From the NCBI RefSeq assembly GCF_030408435.1, contig NZ_CP047046.1, positions 478,572 to 542,571 on the forward strand: 64,000 nt of DNA. Direction: 5' to 3'. Each line of letters opens with the position of its first letter. Positions within the stretch are counted from its first letter, which is position 1. Below, piece by piece: positions 6,311 to 32,489 of this stretch. This DNA is from Corynebacterium auriscanis. GTDB lineage: Bacteria; Actinomycetota; Actinomycetes; Mycobacteriales; Mycobacteriaceae. The notes below the pieces were generated by a model. It saw only the letters and a list, made by a program, of their open reading frames with translations. It did no database searches and was not told the DNA's origin. The position numbers were made by a program, and so were the translations under genes.

Positions 6311-6653
6311 GATGAGATCCTCCATCTGAGGCGATAATGCAATAAACGTCTAGCCAATAGATTAAACCCTTCGCACCGCGAATACATAGTTGTGTTTGCG
6401 CTGCTGACCTATGGCGGGGGCATTTGATGGGTTTTTCGCCCCAAATAAGGGTGGAAGGCGGGTGTTCCGGCCCTTTAATCGATTGTGTGCACTCAAGGGC
6501 AGCCCCGTCATGTCCGTTGACAGGCCGGGGCAGCCTCGGTGCCCAACTGCAGTCTGGGGTAGAATCTGAAAGCCAGCTGGTTAAAACCCCTAGGTTGACT
6601 TGCCCTAGGCGAAAGTGGTTATAGCCCCCAAGGAAGGATGAGTTCTCTCACTC
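6311..6653. other. lpqE/carD divergent intergenic region
   Basis: About 340 nt without a convincing gene. It must hold the divergent promoters for the LpqE-like gene and carD. I see candidate carD promoter elements towards its right end (TAGAAT at 6560-6565; TTGACT and TATAGC at 6595-6625) and no clear riboswitch or repeat. Confidence 0.5.
6595..6625 (+). promoter_or_regulatory. candidate carD promoter
   Basis: TTGACT (6595-6600) and TATAGC (6620-6625) are separated by 19 nt, slightly long for a sigma-A promoter. It would start transcription about 20 nt before the carD ATG. An alternative -10, TAGAAT at 6560-6565, would give a longer leader. Confidence 0.4.
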
Positions 6654-7253
6654 ATGGAGTTCAAGGTCGGAGACACAGTCGTTTACCCGCACCACGGTGC
6701 CGCCGTGATCGAGGGGATCGAGCAGCGCGAGTTCAAGGGGGAGAAGGTCGACTACCTGGTTCTCCGCATCAACCAAGGGGACCTTTCGGTTCGCGTTCCC
6801 GCAGCTAACGCGGAAAAGGTGGGTGTGCGCGATGTGGTCGGCGAGGAAGGGCTTCGCAAGGTCTTTTCCGTCCTTCGCGAAACCGATGTGGAAGAAGCCG
6901 GCAACTGGTCCCGCCGCTACAAGGCTAACCAGGAGCGTCTGACTTCCGGTGACGTCAACAAGGTCGCCGAAGTGGTTCGTGACCTGTGGCGCCGCGATCA
7001 GGACCGGGGCTTGTCCGCAGGTGAGAAGCGGATGCTTGCTAAGGCGCGGCAGATCCTCGTCGGTGAGCTGGCCTTGGCTGAGGGCGTGGACGACAAGAAG
7101 ACCGATGCCCTCTTGGAAGAAATGCAGGAGGCGATTAAGCGTCACCGCGAGGCAGCCGAGGCCGCACGGGCAGCAGGCATCGAAGATGAGGATCCCAAGC
7201 GCCCTGGCACTCCAATCGATCTCGATGAAGAATTGGATGAGGACGAGGATTAA
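6654..7253 (+). CDS. carD: RNA polymerase-binding transcription factor CarD
   Basis: CarD binds the RNA polymerase beta subunit and stabilises open complexes at many promoters, including rRNA promoters, in actinobacteria. The N-terminal RNAP-interaction (TRCF-like Tudor) domain begins [15 protein letters not shown]. The C-terminal helical DNA-binding domain contains the conserved [13 protein letters not shown], with the Trp that contacts the melted DNA edge. The 199-aa product is longer than mycobacterial CarD because of an acidic tail ([11 protein letters not shown]). A GGAAGGA-type site lies somewhat far upstream. It is followed by ispD and ispF, as in Mycobacterium. Confidence 0.95.
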
Positions 7254-7371
7254 TCGCCGCCCCGCTGCCAGCCCTTGTGCGCATTCCCCTATGACAGCGG
7301 TGCGCGTGGGGGAGGGGGCGGTTCGCTTCTCGGTGGATTCAAGTACGGTGCACACGGAGTAACGCATACCC

Positions 7372-12380: not shown

Positions 12381-13829
12381 ATGACGATTGTGACTTTGCG
12401 AATCTACGATACTGCCACCCGCCAACTCCGCGATTTTGAACCGGCCCGTGAGGGGCACGCGTCGATCTACCTGTGTGGCGCTACCGTGCAATCCATCCCG
12501 CACATCGGGCACGTCCGCAGTGGTGTGGCCTTCGACATCCTGCGTAATTGGCTGCAGGCGAAGGGGCTGGACGTGGCGTTTGTGCGTAACGTGACGGATA
12601 TCGATGACAAGATTCTGACTAAAGCCGCCGAAAACGGTCGCCCGTGGTGGGAGTGGGCCGCAACGCACGAACGCGCCTTTAGCTGGGCTTATGACCAATT
12701 GGGGGTGACCCCGCCTTCCATCGAACCACGCGCCACCGGGCACATCCCGCAGATGATTGAGTACATGCAGCGGATCATCGACAACGGTCACGGTTATGCA
12801 GCCGATGGCAATGTGTACGCGCAGCCTGCGACTATCGAGAACTACGGTTTCCTGTCGGGGCAGAAGCTGGACGAGATGGACCAGGGTGAATCCGCCGGCA
12901 CAGGCAAGCGCGATCCGCGTGACTTCACGATGTGGAAAGCAGCCAAGCCCGGTGAGCCCGCCTGGGATACCCCTTGGGGGCGCGGTCGACCCGGTTGGCA
13001 CATCGAGTGCTCCGCTATGGCAACCACCTACTTGGGGAGCGAGTTCGATATTCACTGCGGTGGCCTGGATCTACAGTTCCCGCATCACGAGAACGAGGCC
13101 GCGCAGGCTACCGCCGCAGGCGACGGTTTCGCCCGCTACTGGATGCACAACGGCTGGGTGACCATGAGCGGCGAGAAGATGTCTAAGTCTCTAGGCAATG
13201 TCTTGAGCATCCCCAACGTGCTGAAACTTGTTCGTCCCGTAGAGCTGCGCTATTACCTGGGTAGCGCTCATTACCGCTCGATGTTGGAGTACTCGGAAAC
13301 GGCTTTGGGTGAGGCCGCTGCCGGTTACCGTCGCATCGAGAAGTTTCTGTTGCGTGCGGCTGGTTCTCTTTCTGGTTCCGACGCCACAAGCTTGCCCGAG
13401 ACCATTCCGGCTGGTGAGGTAACGGATGCCTTCGCCGCGAAAATGGACGAGGATCTGGCGGTGCCTCAGGCGCTAGCTCAGATCCATGAACGGGTGCGCG
13501 AGGGCAACAAGCTGCTCGAAGGTAAGTTGGACGAGGCGAAGCGTGCGGAGCTGGCACAGATTGGCGGGGAAGTCCGCGCGATGGCGGCTGTGCTGGGTGT
13601 GGACCCGTTCAGCGAAACGTGGTTGGAGTCCACCAAGGCTACCGCGGGTGGATCGGATGCTGCTATGGGTGCCCTTGATGTGCTGGTGAAGTCGGAGCTG
13701 GTGCGCCGGGCAGAAGCGCGCGCAGCCAAGGATTGGGCGACCGCGGATGAGGTCCGGGATCGCTTGGCCGAGGCCGGTATTGAGGTCACGGACACCGCCG
13801 ATGGCGCGAAGTGGGCGCTGAAGGGGTAA
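12381..13829 (+). CDS. cysS: cysteinyl-tRNA synthetase
   Basis: Class I aminoacyl-tRNA synthetase that charges tRNA-Cys. HIGH-type signature [13 protein letters not shown] and KMSKS motif [11 protein letters not shown] are both present. Zinc-ligand positions are visible in YLCGATV, HIECSAM and FPHHENE. At 482 aa it is normal length. The annotated start is ATG 12381; GTG 12390 (giving MTLRIYDT) fits the usual N-terminus equally well and may be the real one. It is divergent from the FAH gene with about 20 nt between starts. In mycobacteria rlmB follows directly; here about 13 kb intervene. Confidence 0.95.
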
Positions 13830-13839
13830 CGGGACCAAT

Positions 13840-13873
13840 GGTTTTCAGCGGTCTGGGTCTATCGTTGAAAACC
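13840..13873. terminator. imperfect inverted repeat after cysS
   Basis: GGTTTTCAGCG (13840-13850) pairs with CGTTGAAAACC (13863-13873) with one G-T pair and a 12-nt loop, 11 nt after the cysS stop. It has no T-run. It may be a bidirectional terminator with the hairpin at 13921. Confidence 0.45.
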
Positions 13874-13920
13874 GCTGGGGCGAATTGGAGCCGCCGATCA
13901 TCTGCATCAGGATCGAAGAT

Positions 13921-13940
13921 GGCCGCTGGGTTCAGCGGCC
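13921..13940. terminator. perfect GC-rich hairpin between convergent genes
   Basis: GGCCGCTGGGTTCAGCGGCC is an 8-bp perfect stem with a GGTT loop. It lies between the convergent cysS and FMN-reductase genes, so it is a likely terminator or 3'-end stabiliser, although no T-run follows. Confidence 0.5.
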
Positions 13941-13980
13941 GATGTAACTGGGGGGGGTAAGTTTTGCCAGTCGGGCGGGA

Positions 13981-14556
13981 CTAGGAATTTACTTTAACGA
14001 CGAGGTCTGCGACCCGGTTGACATAGTCGGCAACGAAATCTCGGGTGCCTTCATTGGCAAACTCACCGTCGTCTGCGATGAGGGAGGGGGATTGCCCGAG
14101 GAATACCTCGGGCTGCCCTACACTCGGCATGTCGAAGTAGGAGAGGGCCAAGCGGAGATTCTTCTGGGAACTGTAACCGCCCATTCGACCCACCGAATGG
14201 CTGATGATTCCCATTGGTTTGTTCTTCCATACCACGTCGGAGTTTGGCTTAGATCCAATGTCCACAGCATTTTTCAGGCAAGCGGGAATCGTGCGGTTGT
14301 TTTCTGGGGTGACGAAAAGAATTCCGTGTGATTCCTTGATGAGCTGCCGGAATTGCTTGTACTCGTTTGGTTCAGAGACATCGGGGACGTTGGGGTCGTC
14401 GTATTCGAAGTTGTAGAGCGGGAGCTTGCTGATATCGATGATTCGCACCTCCCAATCTTGCGGGAAGAAAGTCATGGCTTGCTTGGCGATCTTGAGTGCG
14501 TAAGAATCGCGGCGTAGGCTGCCAACAAGCACACTGATTACGTAATGAGTGGACAT
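13981..14556 (-). CDS. NADPH-dependent FMN reductase family protein
   Basis: Flavodoxin-fold reductase of 191 aa. Motifs: VLVGSLRRDSYALKIAK (phosphate-binding loop of the ArsH/SsuE/azoreductase-like family), FVTPENNRTIPACLKNAVD and ISHSVGRMGGYSSQ. The start is ATG 14556, with GAAAGGAG 7 nt upstream; the frame extends to 14616, but the extra residues have no support. It lies 152 nt downstream of nrdF on the same strand. Since NrdI is a flavoprotein that must be reduced to make superoxide for R2 activation, a flavin reductase here is a plausible electron donor. That role is inferred from position only. Confidence 0.82.
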   Translation of the reverse strand: MSTHYVISVLVGSLRRDSYALKIAKQAMTFFPQDWEVRIIDISKLPLYNFEYDDPNVPDVSEPNEYKQFRQLIKESHGILFVTPENNRTIPACLKNAVDIGSKPNSDVVWKNKPMGIISHSVGRMGGYSSQKNLRLALSYFDMPSVGQPEVFLGQSPSLIADDGEFANEGTRDFVADYVNRVADLVVKVNS

Positions 14557-14708
14557 AGGAAAACTCCTTTCGCGAGTTTCATTAGGTAAAGAGGATGGGG
14601 TTGAAGGAGACTGCATCAGTCACTCTCATTCATGGGAAGTAGACGTTTTCAAGAGCGGAGCGATGTGATCGTCACGGACGAGGCAATTTCGCTCGTGATT
14701 GCGTCTGG

Positions 14709-15713
14709 TTAGAAATCCCAGTCGGTATCTGCGGTGTCCTCAGCCTTGCCCATGATGTAAGAGGAGCCAGAACCGGAGAAGAAATCGTGGTTTTCATCTG
14801 CGCCTGGGGTCAGCGCGGACAGTATTTCTGGGCTGACATCGGTCTCCTCGGCCGCGAAGTGCGGTTGATAACCGAGGTTCATCAGTGCCTTATTCGCGTT
14901 GTATTTCACGAATTTCACAACATCAGGCATGAGCCCCAGCGGTTCGTAGAGCTCCGCGGAGTACTGGACTTCCAGTGCGAAGAGCTTCTCAAGTAGCGCA
15001 TGAGTGAATTCCGAAAGCTCTGCGGTGCGCTCCGGGTGGTTTTCCAATCCGCGTTGGAATTTGTATCCGGAGTAGTAACCGTGGACCGCCTTGTCCCTCA
15101 GGATCAACCGGATCATGTCGGCGGTGTTCGTAAGCACCCCACGAGTGGAAAAGTGCAGCGGAAGGTAGAAGCCTGCGTAGAGAAGTACCGAGGAAAGGAG
15201 GGTAGCCGAAACCTTTCGTTTCAGTGGGTCCTCCCCAAAGTAATGTTCCAATACGGAGTGACACCGTTGCTGTAGCACGTCATTGTTGACGGCCCATTCA
15301 TACGCTGCGTTAATCGATGGGGTGTTCGCCAGCGTTGAAAACACACTCGAGTAGGATCGAGCATGAACTGACTGCATGAATGCGATATTGGTATATACCG
15401 CTTCTTCATGCTCGGTTTGGGCGTCTTGAATCTGACTTATTTCGCCCACTGTTGCCTGCATGGTATCCAGCAGGGTAAGTCCCGTGAATACCCGCATTGT
15501 CAGTGTTCTTTCCATATCGGATAACCCATTCCAATCTTTGAGGTCATTCGACAATGGAACCTTTTCCGGCAGCCAGAAGTTTGCGGTGAGACGCTGCCAA
15601 ACTTCTTGGTCTTTGTCATCTTGGACTTTATTCCAGTTGATGGGGCGAATTCTTGCCCCTGGATTGTATTTGGCTTTCGGGGGTGTAACCGATTCGGCAA
15701 TTGTTATGCGCAT
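14709..15713 (-). CDS. nrdF: ribonucleotide reductase R2 subunit, metal-free class Ie (R2e, QSK variant)
   Basis: NrdF-like radical-generating subunit, 334 aa. The fold and tail (FFSGSGSSYIMGK...WDF, which docks on NrdE) are standard class Ib. Compared with Salmonella NrdF as I remember it, the metal ligands are Asp83 (kept), Glu to Gln114 in FMQSVHARSY, His117 (kept), Glu to Ser174 in LLSSVLLYAGF, Glu to Lys208 in RDKAVHGYY and His211 (kept). The radical Tyr121 is intact. Gln/Ser/Lys is the signature of class Ie R2e proteins, described from Mycoplasma, which bind no metal and use an oxidised tyrosine (DOPA) radical made with NrdI and oxygen. I checked the Q and S codons in the nucleotide sequence (CAG, TCC). 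AAAGGAG precedes ATG 15713. No nrdE lies nearby. DNA synthesis without Fe or Mn is the inferred role. Confidence 0.92.
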   Translation of the reverse strand: MRITIAESVTPPKAKYNPGARIRPINWNKVQDDKDQEVWQRLTANFWLPEKVPLSNDLKDWNGLSDMERTLTMRVFTGLTLLDTMQATVGEISQIQDAQTEHEEAVYTNIAFMQSVHARSYSSVFSTLANTPSINAAYEWAVNNDVLQQRCHSVLEHYFGEDPLKRKVSATLLSSVLLYAGFYLPLHFSTRGVLTNTADMIRLILRDKAVHGYYSGYKFQRGLENHPERTAELSEFTHALLEKLFALEVQYSAELYEPLGLMPDVVKFVKYNANKALMNLGYQPHFAAEETDVSPEILSALTPGADENHDFFSGSGSSYIMGKAEDTADTDWDF

Positions 15714-15892
15714 TCTTCTCCTTTGGGTCTACTGTCAATTGATAGTTTCTGGTCTGGCAGAGCCACGTGTTGCTAGTGCGTTGCGCCACCAAGGTGCGGT
15801 ATTGCCGACGTTTTTGTTGCGCTGATGTGACATCCACAAAGCCGTGTTGCGCTAACGCAGTTGCGGTGGGCGTTGTGAAACATGACCGTGCT
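15714..15892. other. nrdI-nrdF spacer
   Basis: 179 nt between nrdI and nrdF. It holds the nrdF ribosome-binding site (AAAGGAG) at its left end and several GTTGCGC words. There is no room for nrdE, no recognisable nrdE remnant and no small gene I can support. Confidence 0.5.
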
Positions 15893-16381
15893 TCACATCG
15901 ATTCCCTAGGCAACCGTTTCCAGAATTCTGTGAGTCCTTCGTTGACTCTCTGCACGTCACGGTCGGTGCCGAGCAGTTCAAAGCGGTACAGCTCGGGCAC
16001 TGAACACTTCTTTGCGATGATGGGGCCTGCGATGCAGAAGTGCTCACCGAAGTTAGTGTTTCCACTAGTGATCACCCCACGAATGAGCTTGCGATTATCG
16101 GGGATGTTCAAGAACTGGATTACTTGCTTCGGCACGGCCCCTTTGAGTTCTCCGCCACCGTAGGAAGGAACCACGAGTACGTAAGGGGACGTCACTCGGA
16201 GCATGCCTTCGACTCGTGGCCTCAAGGGGATGCGCAGCGCTGGTCGGTCCAGCTTCTGGATGAAACGATGGGTATTCCCCGACGCGCTTGAAAAATAGAC
16301 GAGATCAGCGGGTTTTCCAGTATTTACACTGCTTCTCAGGCTGACATTAACCGTACGCGTGCTGTTGCTGGTGGCGGACAT
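15893..16381 (-). CDS. nrdI: NrdI flavoprotein, ribonucleotide reductase activator
   Basis: Flavodoxin-like protein that delivers a reduced oxygen species to NrdF. The FMN phosphate loop [14 protein letters not shown], the VPSYGGG loop and the C-terminal [20 protein letters not shown] and [12 protein letters not shown] are all typical. The product is 162 aa with about 26 extra residues before the usual start; no other start codon is available before LVYFSS. A promoter (16389-16417) places the start of transcription at or next to ATG 16381, so the message is probably leaderless. It reads towards nrdF. NrdI is essential for R2e activation in the published systems, so the pair is functionally coherent. 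nrdH and nrdE are absent. Confidence 0.95.
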
Positions 16382-16388
16382 ACAGAAA

Positions 16389-16417
16389 GTTTTACCACGG
16401 CATGAACTGGATGTCTA
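16389..16417 (-). promoter_or_regulatory. nrdI promoter
   Basis: On the minus strand TAGACA (16417-16412) and TAAAAC (16394-16389) are separated by exactly 17 nt. The -10 ends 7 nt before the nrdI ATG, the geometry of a leaderless transcript. CCTAAC (plus strand, about 16425-16430) just upstream resembles half of a DtxR site but the other half is not conserved. Confidence 0.5.
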
Positions 16418-16470
16418 CGTACTACCTAACGTTAAAGTTCAATGGATTGAAGTTTAATCGGGTGCGCAGT

Positions 16471-17037
16471 TTAGGTGCGGGGGAGTGGGAACTCACTGGT
16501 TCCCTCCTCAGGATTCGGGTACTCGTCGGGTTGAAGTGGAAAATTGTCAGTTTGAGTGGCGCCAGGTGAGGGCAGCTCATTACGCTTCGACCACATTGGG
16601 TTCAGTCCGGGCATGAACCACATGGTGGTGGCAACGATGACTGCAATGATGCATCCCCCCACGGTGGACCACCTTGGTGGGATGTACCAGAACCCAGCTA
16701 TGACAAGTAGGCCCATTGCGCCAACGATCATGGGGATGATGAGGCCAAGGTTCAAGCGACGGGCGACCTGGTACTCCTCCCAATCGGCACCGGGGAAGCG
16801 GCCACGCGCTTGGGATCGGATTCGACGCGGGGTTTTTATGGCGGGCACTGCACATGCGATGAGAGTTAGCGCAGAGCCGGCGCTGGCGACAATGACGTCC
16901 CCGATGACGGCGCCATAGGCCATTACGCCGAGTGCCACAGCAAGGGCGAGGCGCTCTGAGGGGGACAGAGAAATCGTCACATGGGGGTCCACTTCGGGGT
17001 AGAGCGTTTCGAGGGGGTTTTCGATGTAGTAGTTCAT
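16471..17037 (-). CDS. four-helix membrane protein, function unknown
   Basis: 188 aa with four hydrophobic segments in two pairs (about residues 29-48 and 50-66, then 97-117 and 125-143), a basic loop between the pairs (KTPRRIRSQARGR) and a Pro/Glu-rich C-terminal tail. No family is recognised. It starts 200 nt from htaA on the opposite strand, with the DtxR-type box between them, and lies 89 nt upstream of nrdI on the same strand. It could therefore be iron-regulated and partly co-transcribed with nrdI. No good ribosome-binding site is seen (AAGAGATG is 8-15 nt upstream). Confidence 0.7.
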   Translation of the reverse strand: MNYYIENPLETLYPEVDPHVTISLSPSERLALAVALGVMAYGAVIGDVIVASAGSALTLIACAVPAIKTPRRIRSQARGRFPGADWEEYQVARRLNLGLIIPMIVGAMGLLVIAGFWYIPPRWSTVGGCIIAVIVATTMWFMPGLNPMWSKRNELPSPGATQTDNFPLQPDEYPNPEEGTSEFPLPRT

Positions 17038-17129
17038 TTTTTGTCATCTCTTAGGGGTGTGACGGGGGTATTTGGGAGCTGTGCCGAAACAATTTCTAGG
17101 CGACGGAGGATTGCCGTGCTAGCTTGTGC

Positions 17130-17148
17130 TTAGGTTTGCCTTACCTAG
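17130..17148. promoter_or_regulatory. DtxR-type iron operator upstream of htaA
   Basis: TTAGGTTTGCCTTACCTAG matches the 19-bp DtxR consensus as I recall it at 16 positions and is near-palindromic. It lies about 90 nt before htaA and overlaps a possible -35 (TTGCCT at 17137-17142, with TACCCT at 17161-17166 after 18 nt). Iron-loaded DtxR would be expected to repress here. It could also affect the divergent membrane-protein gene. Confidence 0.75.
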
Positions 17149-17237
17149 TTAACCGTAGGCTACCCTAATGTGCAGAAGGGACTTGGTAAGAGAAACCGCT
17201 TCCAATCTCCACAGTTTTCGTTTCGATTAGGAATTAC

Positions 17238-19187
17238 ATGTCTCTTTCACTTTCTGGATCACGACGGGGCCTGCTTCACCGGCAGATTAACCGCAGGTCG
17301 ATGGCTCTGGGTGCAGTTACCACGCTCATCTGGGCGCCTATCGCGGCAACTATCGGCAGTACTCCCGTCGCGCTTGCGGCCAGCACCTGTGAATTCAATT
17401 GGGGGATCAAACAGAGCTATCGCCAGTACATTCAAGGCCCCGTCGCCAAGGGTGGCTGGGGCGGGGACGGTATCGGCTTCACCGGCGATAAAGTGGGCGC
17501 TAACGGTGCATTCAAATTCAGCCCCCAAAAGCCACAGGTGACAGGTGACACTGTCACAGTGCCCCTTAACGGTGTGCTTCACTTCAACGGCCACAACTAC
17601 GGCGGCGAGGATTTATGGGACATGACGTTGTCCGATTGGAAGATTCGCGCCAACGGGAACATGGCCGACATCCTGGTGGATTATGTTTCCTACGAATCCG
17701 ACATGGTGAACAAGACCAAAAAAGGTAACAAGATCACCGGGGATGACGAAGTAATCGCCACAATCAAGCTCGCCAATCCCGTCAATACCACGTCTGGAGC
17801 GGTTGATCTTTCCGGGAATACAACCCTTACACAGGGTGGCCACCGCTTATTCCTTGCTTACGACGCAGGGGTATCAATGGATCCGACCAGCGGCGGCGTT
17901 GCTCTTGATGGCAGTTGCGGGTCCGGATCAGGTTCTGGTGCAGGTGCCGGTTCTGGGTCCAAGCGCCCTCTGACCACCATCAGTGGTAATTTCACAGGGT
18001 TCAACAAAGAAGCCATGTCGATTCTGTCTGAGACAAACGACACCATGAACGCGCTTACGTCGTTCATGGGGAACGCCCAGGCATTCCTTGATGAGTACGA
18101 ATCCTTTGTGAAACGTGGCGGTGGCAATACCGTTTCAGGTGGAAGTGCGTCTGGGGGTACTACTTCTCACACCTCTTCTCCATCGGGTAATTCTGCCGGA
18201 AACAGCACGAAGTCCAGCGCAGACGCCGCAGGAACTAGCCACGGCACGTCCAAAACAACGGCGGGAACCGACAAAAATGCCACATCACACGGTGGAAATG
18301 GCTCATCCCGGATCGCGTCGGTGGCTGGCGGGGGTGCAATTGGTGACGCAGGCGTTGCGGGCAGCACATGTGAGGCTGTGAAGTCGGTTGAGAGCGGCGA
18401 GGCCGCATGGGCAGTAAAAGAATCTTTCCAGTCCTACATCACCGGATCCATTGCCAAAGGCAAGTGGGATTTGAATGGAGTGGGCTTCAATAGTGGTCAA
18501 TTCCAATTCACGGCCAATGGTGGCAACGTTGATACTGATGCAAAACAGGGATCTATCTCCCATGGAGGAACCCTGCACTTCACAGGCCACAACGGAATCT
18601 TGGATTTGAGTATTTCCAACCCTGAAATTCAGTTTGAGGGTGAATCAGGAAAGCTCGTTGCCGATGTTCGTTCATCAACCATGGAAGGTGAAAAGAGAGA
18701 TTTCGGCCGCACGGCCCTAGCAGATCTGAGCTTCACATCGCTTGATGTTTCGGATGGTTCGGCACGGGGTAAGGCAGACGTTTCGTTGACCAGCGATGGG
18801 TCTAAGGCTTTCGCAGAGTTTTACGAAGCAGGCACCCAACTAGCACCCATCTCGTTTAGCTCACAACTGGGCGGTCAAGGTGACTGTGCCGGGGTGGGGG
18901 GTTCCACAACTTCTGGTTCCTCAGCGGGGCAGGGCGGTGCAGGTTCTGCGGCCTCGCGTACAGCCGCTGCTGCCAAACTTGCTGCGAAAAACCGGAGTGG
19001 AGATGCAGGCACTAACGGTGATTCCTCCTCCACTGGTTACGAAAACGGTTCTGACAAATTCAAGATCAAGTCGGCCGCAGCTGATGACAGCGGATCAAAC
19101 CCAACAACCTACCTGCTCCTACTGATCGCGGGATTTGTCGTTGCAGGCGGAAGCATTGGCCGATTAGTCGCAAATAACCCGTCTTAA
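17238..19187 (+). CDS. htaA: haem-binding surface protein HtaA, two HtaA (CR) domains
   Basis: Cell-wall-exposed haem and haemoglobin receptor that passes haem towards HmuT. 649 aa: signal peptide ending near VALA-AS (about residue 48), HtaA domain 1 (about 50-215), a Gly/Ser-rich linker, HtaA domain 2 (about 375-545), an Ala/Ser-rich stalk, and a C-terminal membrane anchor (YLLLLIAGFVVAGG). Both domains carry the expected axial-ligand Tyr region (SYRQYIQG with Tyr61; FQSYITG) and the His region (LHFNGHN; LHFTGHN). TAGGA precedes ATG 17238. It is first in a cluster with hmuTUV and sits behind the DtxR box. C. diphtheriae HtaA has the same domain plan. Confidence 0.92.
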   Translation: MSLSLSGSRRGLLHRQINRRSMALGAVTTLIWAPIAATIGSTPVALAASTCEFNWGIKQSYRQYIQGPVAKGGWGGDGIGFTGDKVGANGAFKFSPQKPQVTGDTVTVPLNGVLHFNGHNYGGEDLWDMTLSDWKIRANGNMADILVDYVSYESDMVNKTKKGNKITGDDEVIATIKLANPVNTTSGAVDLSGNTTLTQGGHRLFLAYDAGVSMDPTSGGVALDGSCGSGSGSGAGAGSGSKRPLTTISGNFTGFNKEAMSILSETNDTMNALTSFMGNAQAFLDEYESFVKRGGGNTVSGGSASGGTTSHTSSPSGNSAGNSTKSSADAAGTSHGTSKTTAGTDKNATSHGGNGSSRIASVAGGGAIGDAGVAGSTCEAVKSVESGEAAWAVKESFQSYITGSIAKGKWDLNGVGFNSGQFQFTANGGNVDTDAKQGSISHGGTLHFTGHNGILDLSISNPEIQFEGESGKLVADVRSSTMEGEKRDFGRTALADLSFTSLDVSDGSARGKADVSLTSDGSKAFAEFYEAGTQLAPISFSSQLGGQGDCAGVGGSTTSGSSAGQGGAGSAASRTAAAAKLAAKNRSGDAGTNGDSSSTGYENGSDKFKIKSAAADDSGSNPTTYLLLLIAGFVVAGGSIGRLVANNPS

Positions 19188-29726: not shown

Positions 29727-30650
29727 TTACGACCCAGGGACTGAGTCAGCTGGGTGGTGGGGGCGCTCAGTCACATCGTCGGAGTATTCCTGCGCGCGGT
29801 GTTCATCGGCATTCAAGGACCGAGAAAACGCCCATTCAATCCCGCGGCACACTAGGTAGATCGCGAAGCTCAGCGATGTGACGAAGACAGATACCGGCAA
29901 CCCCGGCGCCAAGGACAACAGCAGGCCACCCACGGCTGAAATCACCGAGAATGTGCCCGAGAGCAACACAGCGATCAGGGGATTGCTCGTGACTCGCACC
30001 GCGGCCGCACCAGGGGTGATGAGCAATGCGATCAGCAGCAGCGCTCCCACGATCTGCACGCCCTGGCTGGCCACCACTCCAATGAGGGCGGCGAAAACAA
30101 GCCCCAGAGTTTTGACCTTCACACCCGAAGCCCCAGCCAGCGCGGGATCGACGGTCGCGAATAGTAGCGGTCGCCACAGCAGCGCCACGACTGCCACCAC
30201 GGCGACAGTTAGTACCGCCAGAAGCCCCAGCGAGCTGGAACTCACACCCACAATCTGACCGGTCAACAGGCTGAATGCCGAGGAACTACGTCCGGGGTAT
30301 AAGTAGATGAACAGCACGGATAACCCCATGCCGAAGCTCAACACCACCGCGACGATTGAATCTTGCTCCTTCGCCCCCAGTGCGGCCAGCACCACGGCGG
30401 CGAGGATGGCGCCCACGAGTGCACCCCAGCTCACACCTATTCCAAATAACAGGGCCGCAGATGCTCCCATCAAGGCCAATTCGCCGGTGGAGTGCGCTGC
30501 GAAGCTCATCTGGCGCATCACAATCAACGGTGCAATGGCGCCGGAAACAATTCCTAGCAAAAGGGCGGCAATGATCGCATGCTGCACAAAATCGACTTGC
30601 AGCAGCGTGAGCGTATCAGCCCACCAATCACCCGTGTGGAAATCCGTCAT
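29727..30650 (-). CDS. zinc (or manganese) ABC transporter permease
   Basis: ABC-3 family permease of the ZnuB/TroC type, 307 aa, with about eight helices. Landmarks: IAPLIVMRQMSFAAHSTGEL near the N-terminus, GQIVGVSS, and QGVQIVGALLLIALLITPGAAA. The C-terminal 35 residues are hydrophilic (SLNADEHRAQEYSDD). The start ATG 30650 overlaps the end of the ATPase gene by 4 nt. Last gene of the three-gene metal-uptake operon. Confidence 0.9.
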   Translation of the reverse strand: MTDFHTGDWWADTLTLLQVDFVQHAIIAALLLGIVSGAIAPLIVMRQMSFAAHSTGELALMGASAALLFGIGVSWGALVGAILAAVVLAALGAKEQDSIVAVVLSFGMGLSVLFIYLYPGRSSSAFSLLTGQIVGVSSSSLGLLAVLTVAVVAVVALLWRPLLFATVDPALAGASGVKVKTLGLVFAALIGVVASQGVQIVGALLLIALLITPGAAAVRVTSNPLIAVLLSGTFSVISAVGGLLLSLAPGLPVSVFVTSLSFAIYLVCRGIEWAFSRSLNADEHRAQEYSDDVTERPHHPADSVPGS

Positions 30651-31348
30651 ACGACAATCAGCCTTCCGTCCACGTTCAGAACCCGCACATCGGTTCGGTA
30701 CAGCTCCGATAGGGTCTCGGAGGTCATTACTTCTTCTACCGAACCGATGGTATGCCCGTGGGGCGTGAGGTACAGGACCCGATCTGTCACATGCAGAATG
30801 GGGTTAATGCCGTGCGTGACAAACAGCACGGCGGTGTTGTGTTCCCGTCGGCGCCGATCTAATAGTTCTACGGTTCGCTTTTGCGCACGCATGTCTAGGG
30901 ACAACAACGGTTCATCGCACAGCAATACGTCCGGATTGTTCGCAAAGGCCTGCGCTTGCCGAATGATTTGTTGTTGACCACCCGAAAGCTGGCCAATTCT
31001 GCGATCGGCCAACCCGGTTGCCCCTACTTCTGCCAGGGCCTGGTCAACGGTTTTTCGGCTTGGCTTTCTTTTTTTGACGACGCCATGGGCCACAGCGAGC
31101 CCGACTAAATCCCGGGCTCGAATGGGGATTGTGGGATCGAACATCCGTTGCTGGGGAATGTAGCCGATCCGCCCATTGACCTCGCATGAACCTCGGGTGA
31201 GCTTGCGGGTACCCAGCGCAGCATTGAGGAGCGTGGATTTCCCCACTCCGTTGGTTCCCAGAATTGCAAGGAACTCACCTGGCGCGACCTCGAAGGAGAG
31301 GTCGCGCCAGAGCGGTTCCATCGCGGCGTCGGTAAAAGAAAGAACCAT
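30647..31348 (-). CDS. zinc (or manganese) ABC transporter ATP-binding protein
   Basis: 233-aa ATPase of the ZnuC/TroB group. Walker A GTNGVGKST, Q-loop YIPQQR, signature LSGGQQQIIRQAQA, Walker B VLLCDEPLLSLD, switch VTHGINP. The start may be GTG or ATG at 31348; no strong ribosome-binding site is visible. It is 19 nt downstream of the binding-protein gene. Confidence 0.91.
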   Translation of the reverse strand: MVLSFTDAAMEPLWRDLSFEVAPGEFLAILGTNGVGKSTLLNAALGTRKLTRGSCEVNGRIGYIPQQRMFDPTIPIRARDLVGLAVAHGVVKKRKPSRKTVDQALAEVGATGLADRRIGQLSGGQQQIIRQAQAFANNPDVLLCDEPLLSLDMRAQKRTVELLDRRRREHNTAVLFVTHGINPILHVTDRVLYLTPHGHTIGSVEEVMTSETLSELYRTDVRVLNVDGRLIVV

Positions 31349-31367
31349 AGTTGAGTAACCTACGCCT

Positions 31368-32489
31368 TTATTTGGTAGCAGCTTCCAGATCGGAGATCAG
31401 CTTCTCAGCGTACTGCAGGTAGTCCTGATTATTGTCCGGGGTTTCGTTAACGTTGATGACCTTCACGCCAGCATCCTTAGCGGCCTTCGTGAGTTGTTCA
31501 GCCGCGGGGGTTTGCGACTGCTCATTGGTGATCAGGATGTCGGCTTTCTTAGAGGTAATGGTCTCACGAGCAGCAGCCAGGTCTGCAGCGGAAGGCTCCG
31601 ACTCGGCGAAAACGGACTTTGCGAAGGCTTCCGGGGTCACATCCGTGAGACCCGAATCCTTCACTACGTCCGAGGCGATTGATTCCGTGAGCACCACGTT
31701 CTTGCCCTTGAGCGCCTTGATACGATCGGCGAACTCATTGGTCTTCTTCTTGAAGTCCGCTGGATCCTTGGCGATCGAGTCATCCTTCGCGTTCAGCTCC
31801 TTGGCCAGATGGTCGGCGAAGTTATTCACCGTTTCCATGTCGAACCAGATGTGAGGGTTCTCGCCGTGAGCGTGGTCATGCTCGTCGTGCATCGCATCGC
31901 TGGGTGTGGCTTCGTCGTGGTTGTGCTCGTCGTGTGCGTGCTCATCCTCGTGCTTGTGCTCGTCGTGCATCGCTTCGCTGGGTGTGGCTTCCTCGTGCTT
32001 GTGCTCGTCGTGCATCGCATCGCTGGGTGTGGCTTCGTCGTGGTTGTGCTCGTCGTGTGCGTGCTCATCCTCGTGCTTGTGCTCGTCGTGGGCACCCTTG
32101 TCACCTGCGCCGTGATCGTGGTGGTGCGCTTCACCCACTGGCTTGGCTGTGATGAGGGGAGTGCCGCTTTCCACGTGATCGGTCAACCAGTTGTCGTAAC
32201 CCGCGCCGTTCCCGACCACGATGTCTGCGGACTTGAGTTCGGCCAAGTCCTTAGCGGTGGCCTCGTACTCGTGAGGATCGTCCTGATTATTGTCCAAGAT
32301 AGTGACTACCTCGACGTTGTTGTGCCCCTTGGCAACCTCTTCTGCAATGTCGCCCCATACCGAGGTGGACGCAACAACCTTGATGTTCTTGCCATCGGCA
32401 GCTGTATCAGTAGAACCACCATCTGCACACGCAGTAACTCCCAGCCCCAAGGTCAGGGCGGCTGCAAGTCCGGTCAAAGTCTTCTTCAT
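31368..32489 (-). CDS. zinc-binding lipoprotein with His/Asp/Glu-rich repeats (ZnuA/TroA family)
   Basis: 373 aa. Signal peptide with lipobox VTAC. Cluster A-I metal-binding fold: VVASTSVWGDIAEEV, NNQDDPHEYEATAKDL with a metal-ligand His, ADIVVGNGAGYDNWL, NPHIWFDMETVNNFADHL with the second His, and ITNEQSQTPAAEQL. A flexible loop at about residues 121-212 is packed with His and acidic residues (DEHKHEDEHAHDEHNHDE and similar), typical of zinc rather than manganese binders, and probably collects zinc. AGGTGA lies 6 nt before the ATG. The order binding protein-ATPase-permease next to ipsA matches C. glutamicum from memory. Zur control is likely, but I could not identify a convincing Zur box. 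Confidence 0.92.
   Translation of the reverse strand: MKKTLTGLAAALTLGLGVTACADGGSTDTAADGKNIKVVASTSVWGDIAEEVAKGHNNVEVVTILDNNQDDPHEYEATAKDLAELKSADIVVGNGAGYDNWLTDHVESGTPLITAKPVGEAHHHDHGAGDKGAHDEHKHEDEHAHDEHNHDEATPSDAMHDEHKHEEATPSEAMHDEHKHEDEHAHDEHNHDEATPSDAMHDEHDHAHGENPHIWFDMETVNNFADHLAKELNAKDDSIAKDPADFKKKTNEFADRIKALKGKNVVLTESIASDVVKDSGLTDVTPEAFAKSVFAESEPSAADLAAARETITSKKADILITNEQSQTPAAEQLTKAAKDAGVKVINVNETPDNNQDYLQYAEKLISDLEAATK
31879..32090 (-). repeat. internal direct repeats in the zinc-binding lipoprotein gene
   Basis: About 89 nt at 31879-31967 recur, essentially identical, at 32002-32090 (period 123 nt, 41 codons). A shorter copy lies between them. They encode the His-rich loop, so recombination would alter loop length in frame. 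Confidence 0.8.

What the first reader, a model, noticed from the sequence alone, without database searches (positions are those of the whole stretch)
14709..15713. NrdF carries the Gln-Ser-Lys signature of the metal-free class Ie ribonucleotide reductase
Three metal-binding glutamates of class I R2 are replaced: Gln114 (FMQSVHARSY), Ser174 (LLSSVLLYAGF) and Lys208 (RDKAVHGYY). Asp83, His117, His211 and the radical Tyr121 remain, as does the NrdE-docking tail. R2e proteins with QSK or VPK replacements are known to hold a DOPA radical with no metal, from Mycoplasma and a few other pathogens. A QSK form in a Corynebacterium, a genus known for a manganese NrdF, is a notable find. The residues are seen directly; metal independence is inferred from the family.
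Basis: partly seen in the sequence, partly recalled or inferred. Interest (0 to 1): 0.93.

Follow-up and report, generated by a model that had tools for sequence, protein, structure and literature searches.

The report
Manganese-starvation backup for making DNA precursors
A Corynebacterium carries a second ribonucleotide reductase subunit that lacks three metal-binding residues and sits, with a flavin reductase gene, behind a DNA site shared with manganese-uptake genes; it would likely let the cell keep making DNA building blocks without metal when manganese runs out.

Summary
The minus-strand NrdF has Q114, S174 and K208 for three glutamates, keeps D83, H117, Y121, H211, groups with other QSK proteins and is closest to the solved Gardnerella class Ie R2 (8rag/8rah). 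But QSK in Corynebacterium is already in print; a Q-type R2 is in 110 of 242 Corynebacterium genomes here. New is the setting. (1) The genome has one NrdE and a normal EEE NrdF: this is a spare R2. (2) A palindrome 54 bp before nrdI (16436-16453) also lies at mntR/mntA, mntH and sodA/ldh of this genome; it is at 25 of 80 QSK promoters, 0 of 129 EEE promoters. In C. diphtheriae the published MntR-regulated nrdI-nrdF2 maps to the QSK locus. (3) A flavin reductase follows nrdF; homologs are in 77 of 110 Q genomes, 7 of 132 others, mostly adjacent. In C. diphtheriae it lies elsewhere, yet carries the palindrome and matches the MntR-regulated 'oxidoreductase' DIP2262. Best reading: a metal-free R2 derepressed by manganese starvation, with a dedicated flavin reductase, perhaps the NrdI reductase. 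Metal freedom, MntR binding and the reductase's role are untested here.

The parts
14709..15713 (-). nrdF, class Ie (QSK) R2 subunit, 334 aa; Q114 at 15372-15374, S174 at 15192-15194, K208 at 15090-15092, radical Tyr121 at 15351-15353
   Evidence: ORF, codons, NCBIfam NrdF models, PDB 8rag/8rah best, alignment, tree
15893..16381 (-). nrdI, flavodoxin-like activase, 162 aa
   Evidence: TIGR00333 over its cut-off, PF07972
13981..14556 (-). flavin reductase (PF03358); the ORF opens at 14616, the start at 14556 fits the relatives better
   Evidence: Pfam, alignment, model and Foldseek: FerB, ChrR, ArsH; conserved beside nrdF-QSK
16436..16453 (.). palindrome ACTTCAATCCATTGAACT (minus strand), predicted MntR operator, 54 bp before the nrdI start
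   Evidence: same element at mntR/mntA, mntH and sodA/ldh of this genome
16471..17037 (-). 188-aa membrane-type protein of unknown family upstream of nrdI; not clearly part of the unit
   Evidence: no Pfam or NCBIfam match; of the loci held only copies of this locus matched; also in G142
17130..17148 (.). DtxR-box-like site between the 188-aa gene and htaA; probably serves the heme operon, not nrdI
   Evidence: 3 mismatches, 0 expected in 100 shuffles; 89 and 92 bp from the two starts

Best explanation
The window encodes a QSK-type class Ie R2 (NrdF) with its activase NrdI and a flavin reductase gene behind a palindrome shared with the cell's manganese genes; it is predicted to be a metal-free R2 that MntR likely releases when manganese runs out and that would share the cell's only NrdE with the normal, predicted manganese-type NrdF. 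Shown by sequence: the three replaced ligands, the kept Asp/His/Tyr, one NrdE and a second (EEE) NrdF in the genome, and the palindrome at nrdI, mntR/mntA, mntH and sodA/ldh. Inferred from the family (PMC11846895): no metal, and Tyr121 turned into DOPA with an oxidant from NrdI. Inferred from the palindrome and from C. diphtheriae RNA-seq (PMC13001254): repression by MntR at high manganese. Inferred from linkage and co-occurrence: the flavin reductase serves this R2; most likely it passes NAD(P)H electrons to NrdI so that NrdI can keep making the oxidant (my odds about 45%), otherwise it repairs over-oxidised DOPA (a quinone) or acts less directly.
For: Residues and kinship. One R1 and two R2 in the genome. 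Palindrome: window copy 13 of 14; of the own genome's 13 sites with up to 2 mismatches, four lie at nrdI-QSK, sodA/ldh, mntH and between mntR and mntA, and the same four in G142; 12 or more of 14 at 25 of 80 QSK nrdI promoters, at most 10 at 129 EEE promoters. It never coincides with an MntR-like gene in the locus: 0 of 28 with the gene, 25 of 52 without; dereplicated 0 of 19 and 18 of 40, p 2e-4. MntR-like gene or Mn/Fe-type binding protein in 23 of 63 dereplicated QSK loci, 0 of 28 and 0 of 19 EEE loci. C. diphtheriae (G038): the only perfect site is at QSK nrdI, one of two 1-mismatch sites is at the reductase next to sodA; PMC13001254 Table 3 lists nrdI-nrdF2 and DIP2262, neighbour of sodA, as MntR-regulated with the same sign as mntABCD. 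Reductase: 77 of 110 Q genomes against 7 of 132 others; 67 of 77 within 11 kb.
Against: No binding, expression or enzyme data for this organism. The reversed-pattern control gave 7 sites where the palindrome gave 13, so about half of such sites are chance; nine own-genome sites are unexplained. 27 of 52 QSK loci without an MntR-like gene also lack the palindrome at 12 or more. In C. diphtheriae mntA, the best known MntR target, has only an 11 of 14 site, and one of its three best sites precedes a response-regulator gene. The reductase is missing in 33 of 110 Q genomes and in Gardnerella, whose QSK enzyme was shown active without it. Correcting for kinship, the pairs test goes the right way but is weak: same way 4.5, other way 0.2, median p 0.125, 62 of 242 genomes, chosen by me. 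The match of DIP numbers to G038 is by gene order; I did not see the DIP sequences.
Confidence: 0.7

Rival explanations
1. The unit is an iron-starvation R2: DtxR acts at the hmu junction and transcription runs through the 188-aa gene into nrdI-nrdF.
For: DtxR-like site at 17130-17148 between htaA and the 188-aa gene, 0 expected by chance; C. diphtheriae htaA-hmuTUV are listed among iron-repressed genes (PMC13001254 passage).
Against: htaA/hmuT lie near the QSK gene in only 2 of 86 QSK loci, the window and G142; DtxR-like sites at 4 of 81 QSK nrdI promoters against 1.05 expected in shuffles, so at best a weak excess; DtxR did not bind the C. diphtheriae nrdI promoter.
Confidence: 0.12
2. QSK R2 is a constitutive second R2 and its link with manganese genes is an accident of where the cassette landed.
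For: 27 of 52 QSK loci without an MntR-like gene lack the palindrome; Bifidobacterium, Gardnerella and Streptomyces loci show neither.
Against: The palindrome sits before nrdI in many different places, and the unlinked C. diphtheriae reductase has it too; 0 of 129 EEE promoters have it.
Confidence: 0.1
3. The reductase is a hitchhiker: a quinone or redox-stress enzyme of the manganese regulon with no role in R2 activation.
For: Its fold kin FerB, ChrR and ArsH act on quinones, chromate or arsenicals (names; functions recalled); in G038, G138, G148 and G225 it stands next to sodA; Gardnerella QSK works without it.
Against: 77 of 110 Q genomes against 7 of 132 others and adjacency in many branches; 0 of 45 EEE-only loci.
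Confidence: 0.35
4. NrdF(QSK) still uses a metal, bound by what is left of the site (Asp, two His, one Glu).
For: Asp83, His117, His211 remain; copper(I)-bound structures of a class Ie R2 exist (titles).
Against: The Gardnerella QSK protein contained no iron or manganese and needed DOPA for activity (PMC11846895).
Confidence: 0.06
5. The gene is a decaying duplicate without function.
For: One other QSK locus (L227, G129) shows an in-frame stop.
Against: Open frame, all family residues, DWDF tail; a Q-type R2 is kept in 110 of 242 genomes.
Confidence: 0.03

Closest known systems
Class Ie R2eQSK of Gardnerella vaginalis (8rag, 8rah; PMC11846895)
   Same: Q/S/K triad, Asp, two His and Tyr kept, NrdI present; 66% identity
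   Different: Gardnerella has nrdHIEF with its own nrdE and no close reductase homolog in its genomes (3 of 3); here nrdI-nrdF-reductase, a shared NrdE, an EEE NrdF beside it and the palindrome
nrdI-nrdF2 (DIP1923-1924) of the MntR regulon of C. diphtheriae (PMC13001254)
   Same: By mapping, the same QSK nrdI-nrdF pair behind the same palindrome, NrdE elsewhere
   Different: Its reductase is unlinked, next to sodA; the paper's text does not call it class Ie or metal-free (term search)
Class Ie R2eVPK (Mesoplasma, Aerococcus, S. pyogenes)
   Same: Three Glu replaced, shared Lys, NrdI needed
   Different: V/P instead of Q/S; order nrdFIE with own nrdE; Bacillota. Iron and manganese repress the S. 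pyogenes one (Do et al. as cited in PMC8463856)
E. coli NrdEF, manganese RNR used in iron starvation
   Same: Works alike: a spare RNR for metal shortage (PMC8463856 passages)
   Different: Class Ib with manganese and its own R1, used in iron and not manganese shortage
FerB / ChrR / ArsH NAD(P)H flavoenzymes
   Same: PF03358, flavodoxin-like fold
   Different: 18-27% identity in the first 15 structure matches; the QSK-linked proteins form a subfamily of their own (50-68% to the window's)

Membership tests
Class Ie R2 (QSK) | Three ligand Glu replaced by Gln, Ser, Lys | tested here: met
Class Ie R2 (QSK) | Asp, two His and the radical Tyr kept | tested here: met
Class Ie R2 (QSK) | Groups with QSK and not with EEE proteins | tested here: met
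   88 QSK and 8 EEE rows, starred branch of 100
Class Ie R2 (QSK) | NrdI encoded with it | tested here: met
Class Ie R2 (QSK) | No metal; DOPA at the tyrosine; active with an R1 | not testable with these tools
   known for the Gardnerella protein (PMC11846895)
Class Ib (manganese) R2 | Full set of carboxylate ligands | tested here: not met
   Q, S, K at three of them
MntR regulon | Operator shared with other manganese genes of the genome | tested here: met
   nrdI, sodA/ldh, mntH, mntR/mntA
MntR regulon | An MntR encoded in the genome | tested here: inconclusive
   DtxR-family protein (PF01325, PF02742, FeoA) beside a Mn-type binding protein; best NCBIfam model MntR, but 160 bits against a cut-off of 350
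MntR regulon | MntR binding and manganese response | not testable with these tools
   C. diphtheriae only (PMC13001254)
NAD(P)H flavin reductase (PF03358) | Family score and flavodoxin-like fold | tested here: met
   100.6 bits against 24; Foldseek FerB and ChrR first; model pLDDT 72
NrdI reductase | Reduces NrdI with NAD(P)H | not testable with these tools
   inferred from linkage only

The most novel reading that the evidence does not exclude
QSK class Ie R2 is the metal-free arm of an MntR-controlled swap: at low manganese the cell replaces its manganese NrdF by NrdI-NrdF(QSK) on the same NrdE, and the linked flavin reductase is the missing NrdI reductase (or DOPA-quinone repair enzyme) that makes this R2 work in the cell.
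Probability: 0.38. Interest if true: 0.8.

Novelty: new variant of a known kind. Interest (0 to 1): 0.62.

Why it matters
[quoted passage not shown] The shared palindrome offers a concrete answer to the first, manganese starvation, and the conserved reductase a concrete candidate for the second; both can be tested with a few proteins. It would also explain why corynebacteria with a normal R2 keep a second, metal-free one.

Tried and rejected
Iron/heme control as the general rule: dropped (2 of 86 loci). NrdR boxes: a loose scan hit 11 QSK loci at up to 3 mismatches, one (L178) at 1, not the window. The first Q pattern (56 of 242 genomes) missed FMQA and HAK forms; the widened one (110 of 242) replaced it and one search replaces. 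'QSK as sole RNR' (40 Corynebacterium species in PMC11846895) was not seen: 110 of 110 Q genomes also match the E pattern. The pattern tests one Glu; 20 of 20 same-genome loci fetched were EEE, plus L001 and L285. I cannot say why the counts differ. Promoter and terminator consensus scans of 13800-17300 found nothing.

Rows dropped or shared: 17 weak reductase matches (29-37% identity), the only match in 15 genomes, were left out and one split match (G197) kept. The palindrome was first seen by eye in the promoters printed (G035, G038, G089) and in the window; these loci are inside the 80. Among the 80, L007 and L211 are one gene and some others are exact copies; the dereplicated count is 18 of 59. 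One search scanned 81 promoters, 80, with another length limit. Ten of the 161 loci had no nrdF call and were not counted; flanks are not equal in all loci.

Full report
Observation. The ORF at 14709-15713 (minus) encodes a 334-aa NrdF with Q114, S174 and K208. Against four EEE NrdF the three residues fall on the Glu columns. All loci then held gave 177 QSK and 52 EEE matches and no mixed form (overlapping loci included). PDB search: 8rag and 8rah at 505 bits, next 9l6o at 445. A tree of 88 QSK and 8 EEE rows separates the two with a starred branch; the window's nearest kin are G142 (97%) and G227 (81%), then genes of Mycetocola and Leucobacter.

What is already in print. PMC11846895 (abstract, sections 6 and 11, passages) describes QSK enzymes: 275 genes, all Actinomycetota; nrdIF in 104 stretches, nearly always with an nrdE elsewhere; no iron or manganese and a DOPA in the Gardnerella protein. 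So the NrdF as such is one more example of a known kind. One point differs: the paper counts 40 Corynebacterium species with QSK as sole RNR, while here all 110 genomes with a Q-pattern R2 (of 242) also match the E pattern.

The genome's RNR set. Two R2 and one R1. NrdE follows nrdH and nrdI; the EEE NrdF comes behind a ferritin-like gene (small genes named by eye). The QSK gene has its own nrdI and no nrdE. Both R2 end in DWDF. Sharing of NrdE is inferred.

The reductase. Downstream lies a PF03358 protein. Of the 80 loci, 35 hold a QSK gene and 45 only EEE; close homologs sit in 15 of 35 and 0 of 45. Genome-wide (50 genomes): 16 of 35 QSK genomes have a homolog of 50% identity or more, and 1 of 15 EEE-only genomes (Canibacter oris). 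In 242 Corynebacterium genomes: 77 of 110 with a Q-type R2, 7 of 132 without (Fisher p 5e-28, not corrected for kinship); 67 of the 77 within 11 kb, 63 within 2.5 kb, 10 elsewhere. On 62 genomes that I chose, independent pairs go the same way in 4.5 and the other way in 0.2 on average, median p 0.125: right direction, too few pairs. NrdF and reductase distances correlate, r 0.36 over 28 loci, 10 of 2000 permutations as high. Linkage is found in separate deep branches and is missing in Bifidobacterium, Gardnerella, Streptomyces and one large Corynebacterium branch. The model (pLDDT 72, low in two loops) is flavodoxin-like; best matches FerB, an NADH-dependent reductase, ChrR and ArsH.

Manganese genes near QSK loci. 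In 18 of 62 dereplicated loci a gene on the same strand upstream of nrdI recurs. Three scanned examples carry PF01325, PF02742 and FeoA; the best NCBIfam model of four is MntR, below its cut-off. Brevibacterium and Brachybacterium loci hold a binding protein nearest to Mn/Fe models, a Leucobacter locus a Mn/Fe-type ATPase. By profile search, regulator or binding protein occur in 23 of 63 dereplicated QSK loci, 0 of 28 EEE loci of other genera and 0 of 19 EEE loci of the same Corynebacterium genomes. The window has no such regulator beside it.

The palindrome. In genomes where the reductase is unlinked, nrdI and reductase promoters showed a common element, AGTTCAANNNNTTGAACT. It scores 12 or more of 14 at 25 of 80 QSK nrdI promoters and never above 10 at 129 EEE promoters. 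It and the resident MntR-like gene exclude each other: 0 of 28 loci with the gene, 25 of 52 without (p 1.7e-6); dereplicated 0 of 19 and 18 of 40 (p 2e-4). Twenty-seven of the 52 have neither. The window's copy at 16436-16453 scores 13, 54 bp before nrdI; in the window alone 5 sites of up to 3 mismatches compare with 1.4 expected, so the window by itself would not prove it. In the whole own genome 13 sites have up to 2 mismatches (reversed control 7). Besides nrdI they include one between sodA (84% to the sodA of L205) and ldh, one before an NRAMP gene (426.6 bits for MntH, cut-off 430), and one between an MntR-like gene and a Mn-type binding protein. G142 repeats all four. I take the other nine as background.

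C. diphtheriae as an outside check. G038 has an HmuO identical over 215 residues to 1iw0 (organism recalled). Its one perfect palindrome precedes the QSK nrdI; of two 1-mismatch sites one precedes the reductase, which follows sodA, the other a response-regulator gene and is unexplained. Its mntA has a weaker site, 11 of 14. PMC13001254 Table 3 (section 8 read) lists as MntR-regulated piuB, mntABCD, nrdI-nrdF2, sodA with the opposite sign, and the neighbour of sodA, 'Oxidoreductase' DIP2262, with the sign of nrdI-nrdF2. The EEE nrdF of G038 has no nrdI beside it; its nrdI precedes nrdE. So nrdI-nrdF2 should be the QSK pair and DIP2262 the reductase. This rests on gene order; I saw no DIP sequence, and Peng et al. 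2021 only as a citation.

How it likely works. With manganese, MntR holds nrdI-nrdF (and, if co-transcribed, the reductase) off and the EEE NrdF serves NrdE. Without manganese that NrdF cannot be loaded; MntR lets go; NrdI and NrdF(QSK) are made; reduced NrdI makes the oxidant that turns Tyr121 into a DOPA radical; NrdE is served again. The reductase would feed NrdI, which fits two statements in print: a short-lived QSK radical would need constantly reduced NrdI (PMC11846895), and a flavodoxin reductase raised radical yield in Bacillus cereus class Ib (PMC8463856 passage). Repair of DOPA-quinone is my second choice. Everything beyond sequence, palindrome and linkage is inference.

Literature searched for the reductase link or for manganese control of class Ie: in a library of open-access papers only. 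I saw no listed paper that ties a flavin reductase to QSK R2. Metal control is partly in print: PMC8463856 cites Do et al. for repression of the S. pyogenes class Ie genes by Fe and Mn, and PMC13001254 has nrdI-nrdF2 under MntR; its text has no match for 'metal-free' or 'class I'. The novelty I claim is the join: the QSK R2, the palindrome and the reductase as one unit.

Noticed in passing
window 17130-17148: DtxR-box-like site in the junction between the heme-uptake operon (htaA 17238 +, with HmuT-, HtaA- and heme oxygenase-family genes downstream) and the 188-aa gene ahead of nrdI.
   Followed up: partly
window 29727-32489: A metal ABC transporter whose binding protein (PF01297) has weak, mixed scores to Mn and Zn models.
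   Followed up: partly
L290 (G038:C1:1961409): A 1-mismatch palindrome 60-70 bp before a response-regulator gene in C. diphtheriae; not explained by the manganese reading.
   Followed up: no
L286 (G000:C1:200204): The palindrome lies between sodA and a lactate dehydrogenase gene, so either or both may belong to the manganese regulon.
   Followed up: partly
L227 (G129), 6392-7351: A QSK nrdF with an in-frame stop, a possible decaying copy.
   Followed up: no
G031, G156, G244, G251: Genomes with two Q-type or QSK nrdF genes.
   Followed up: no
242 Corynebacterium genomes: All 110 genomes with a Q-pattern R2 also match the E pattern, at odds with the published count of 40 Corynebacterium species with QSK as sole RNR.
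   Followed up: partly
L009, L013, L014, L015, L017, L020: Close QSK relatives come from Leucobacter, Brevibacterium, Mycetocola and Brachybacterium, several of them cheese-rind species as I recall, which hints at horizontal spread.
   Followed up: no
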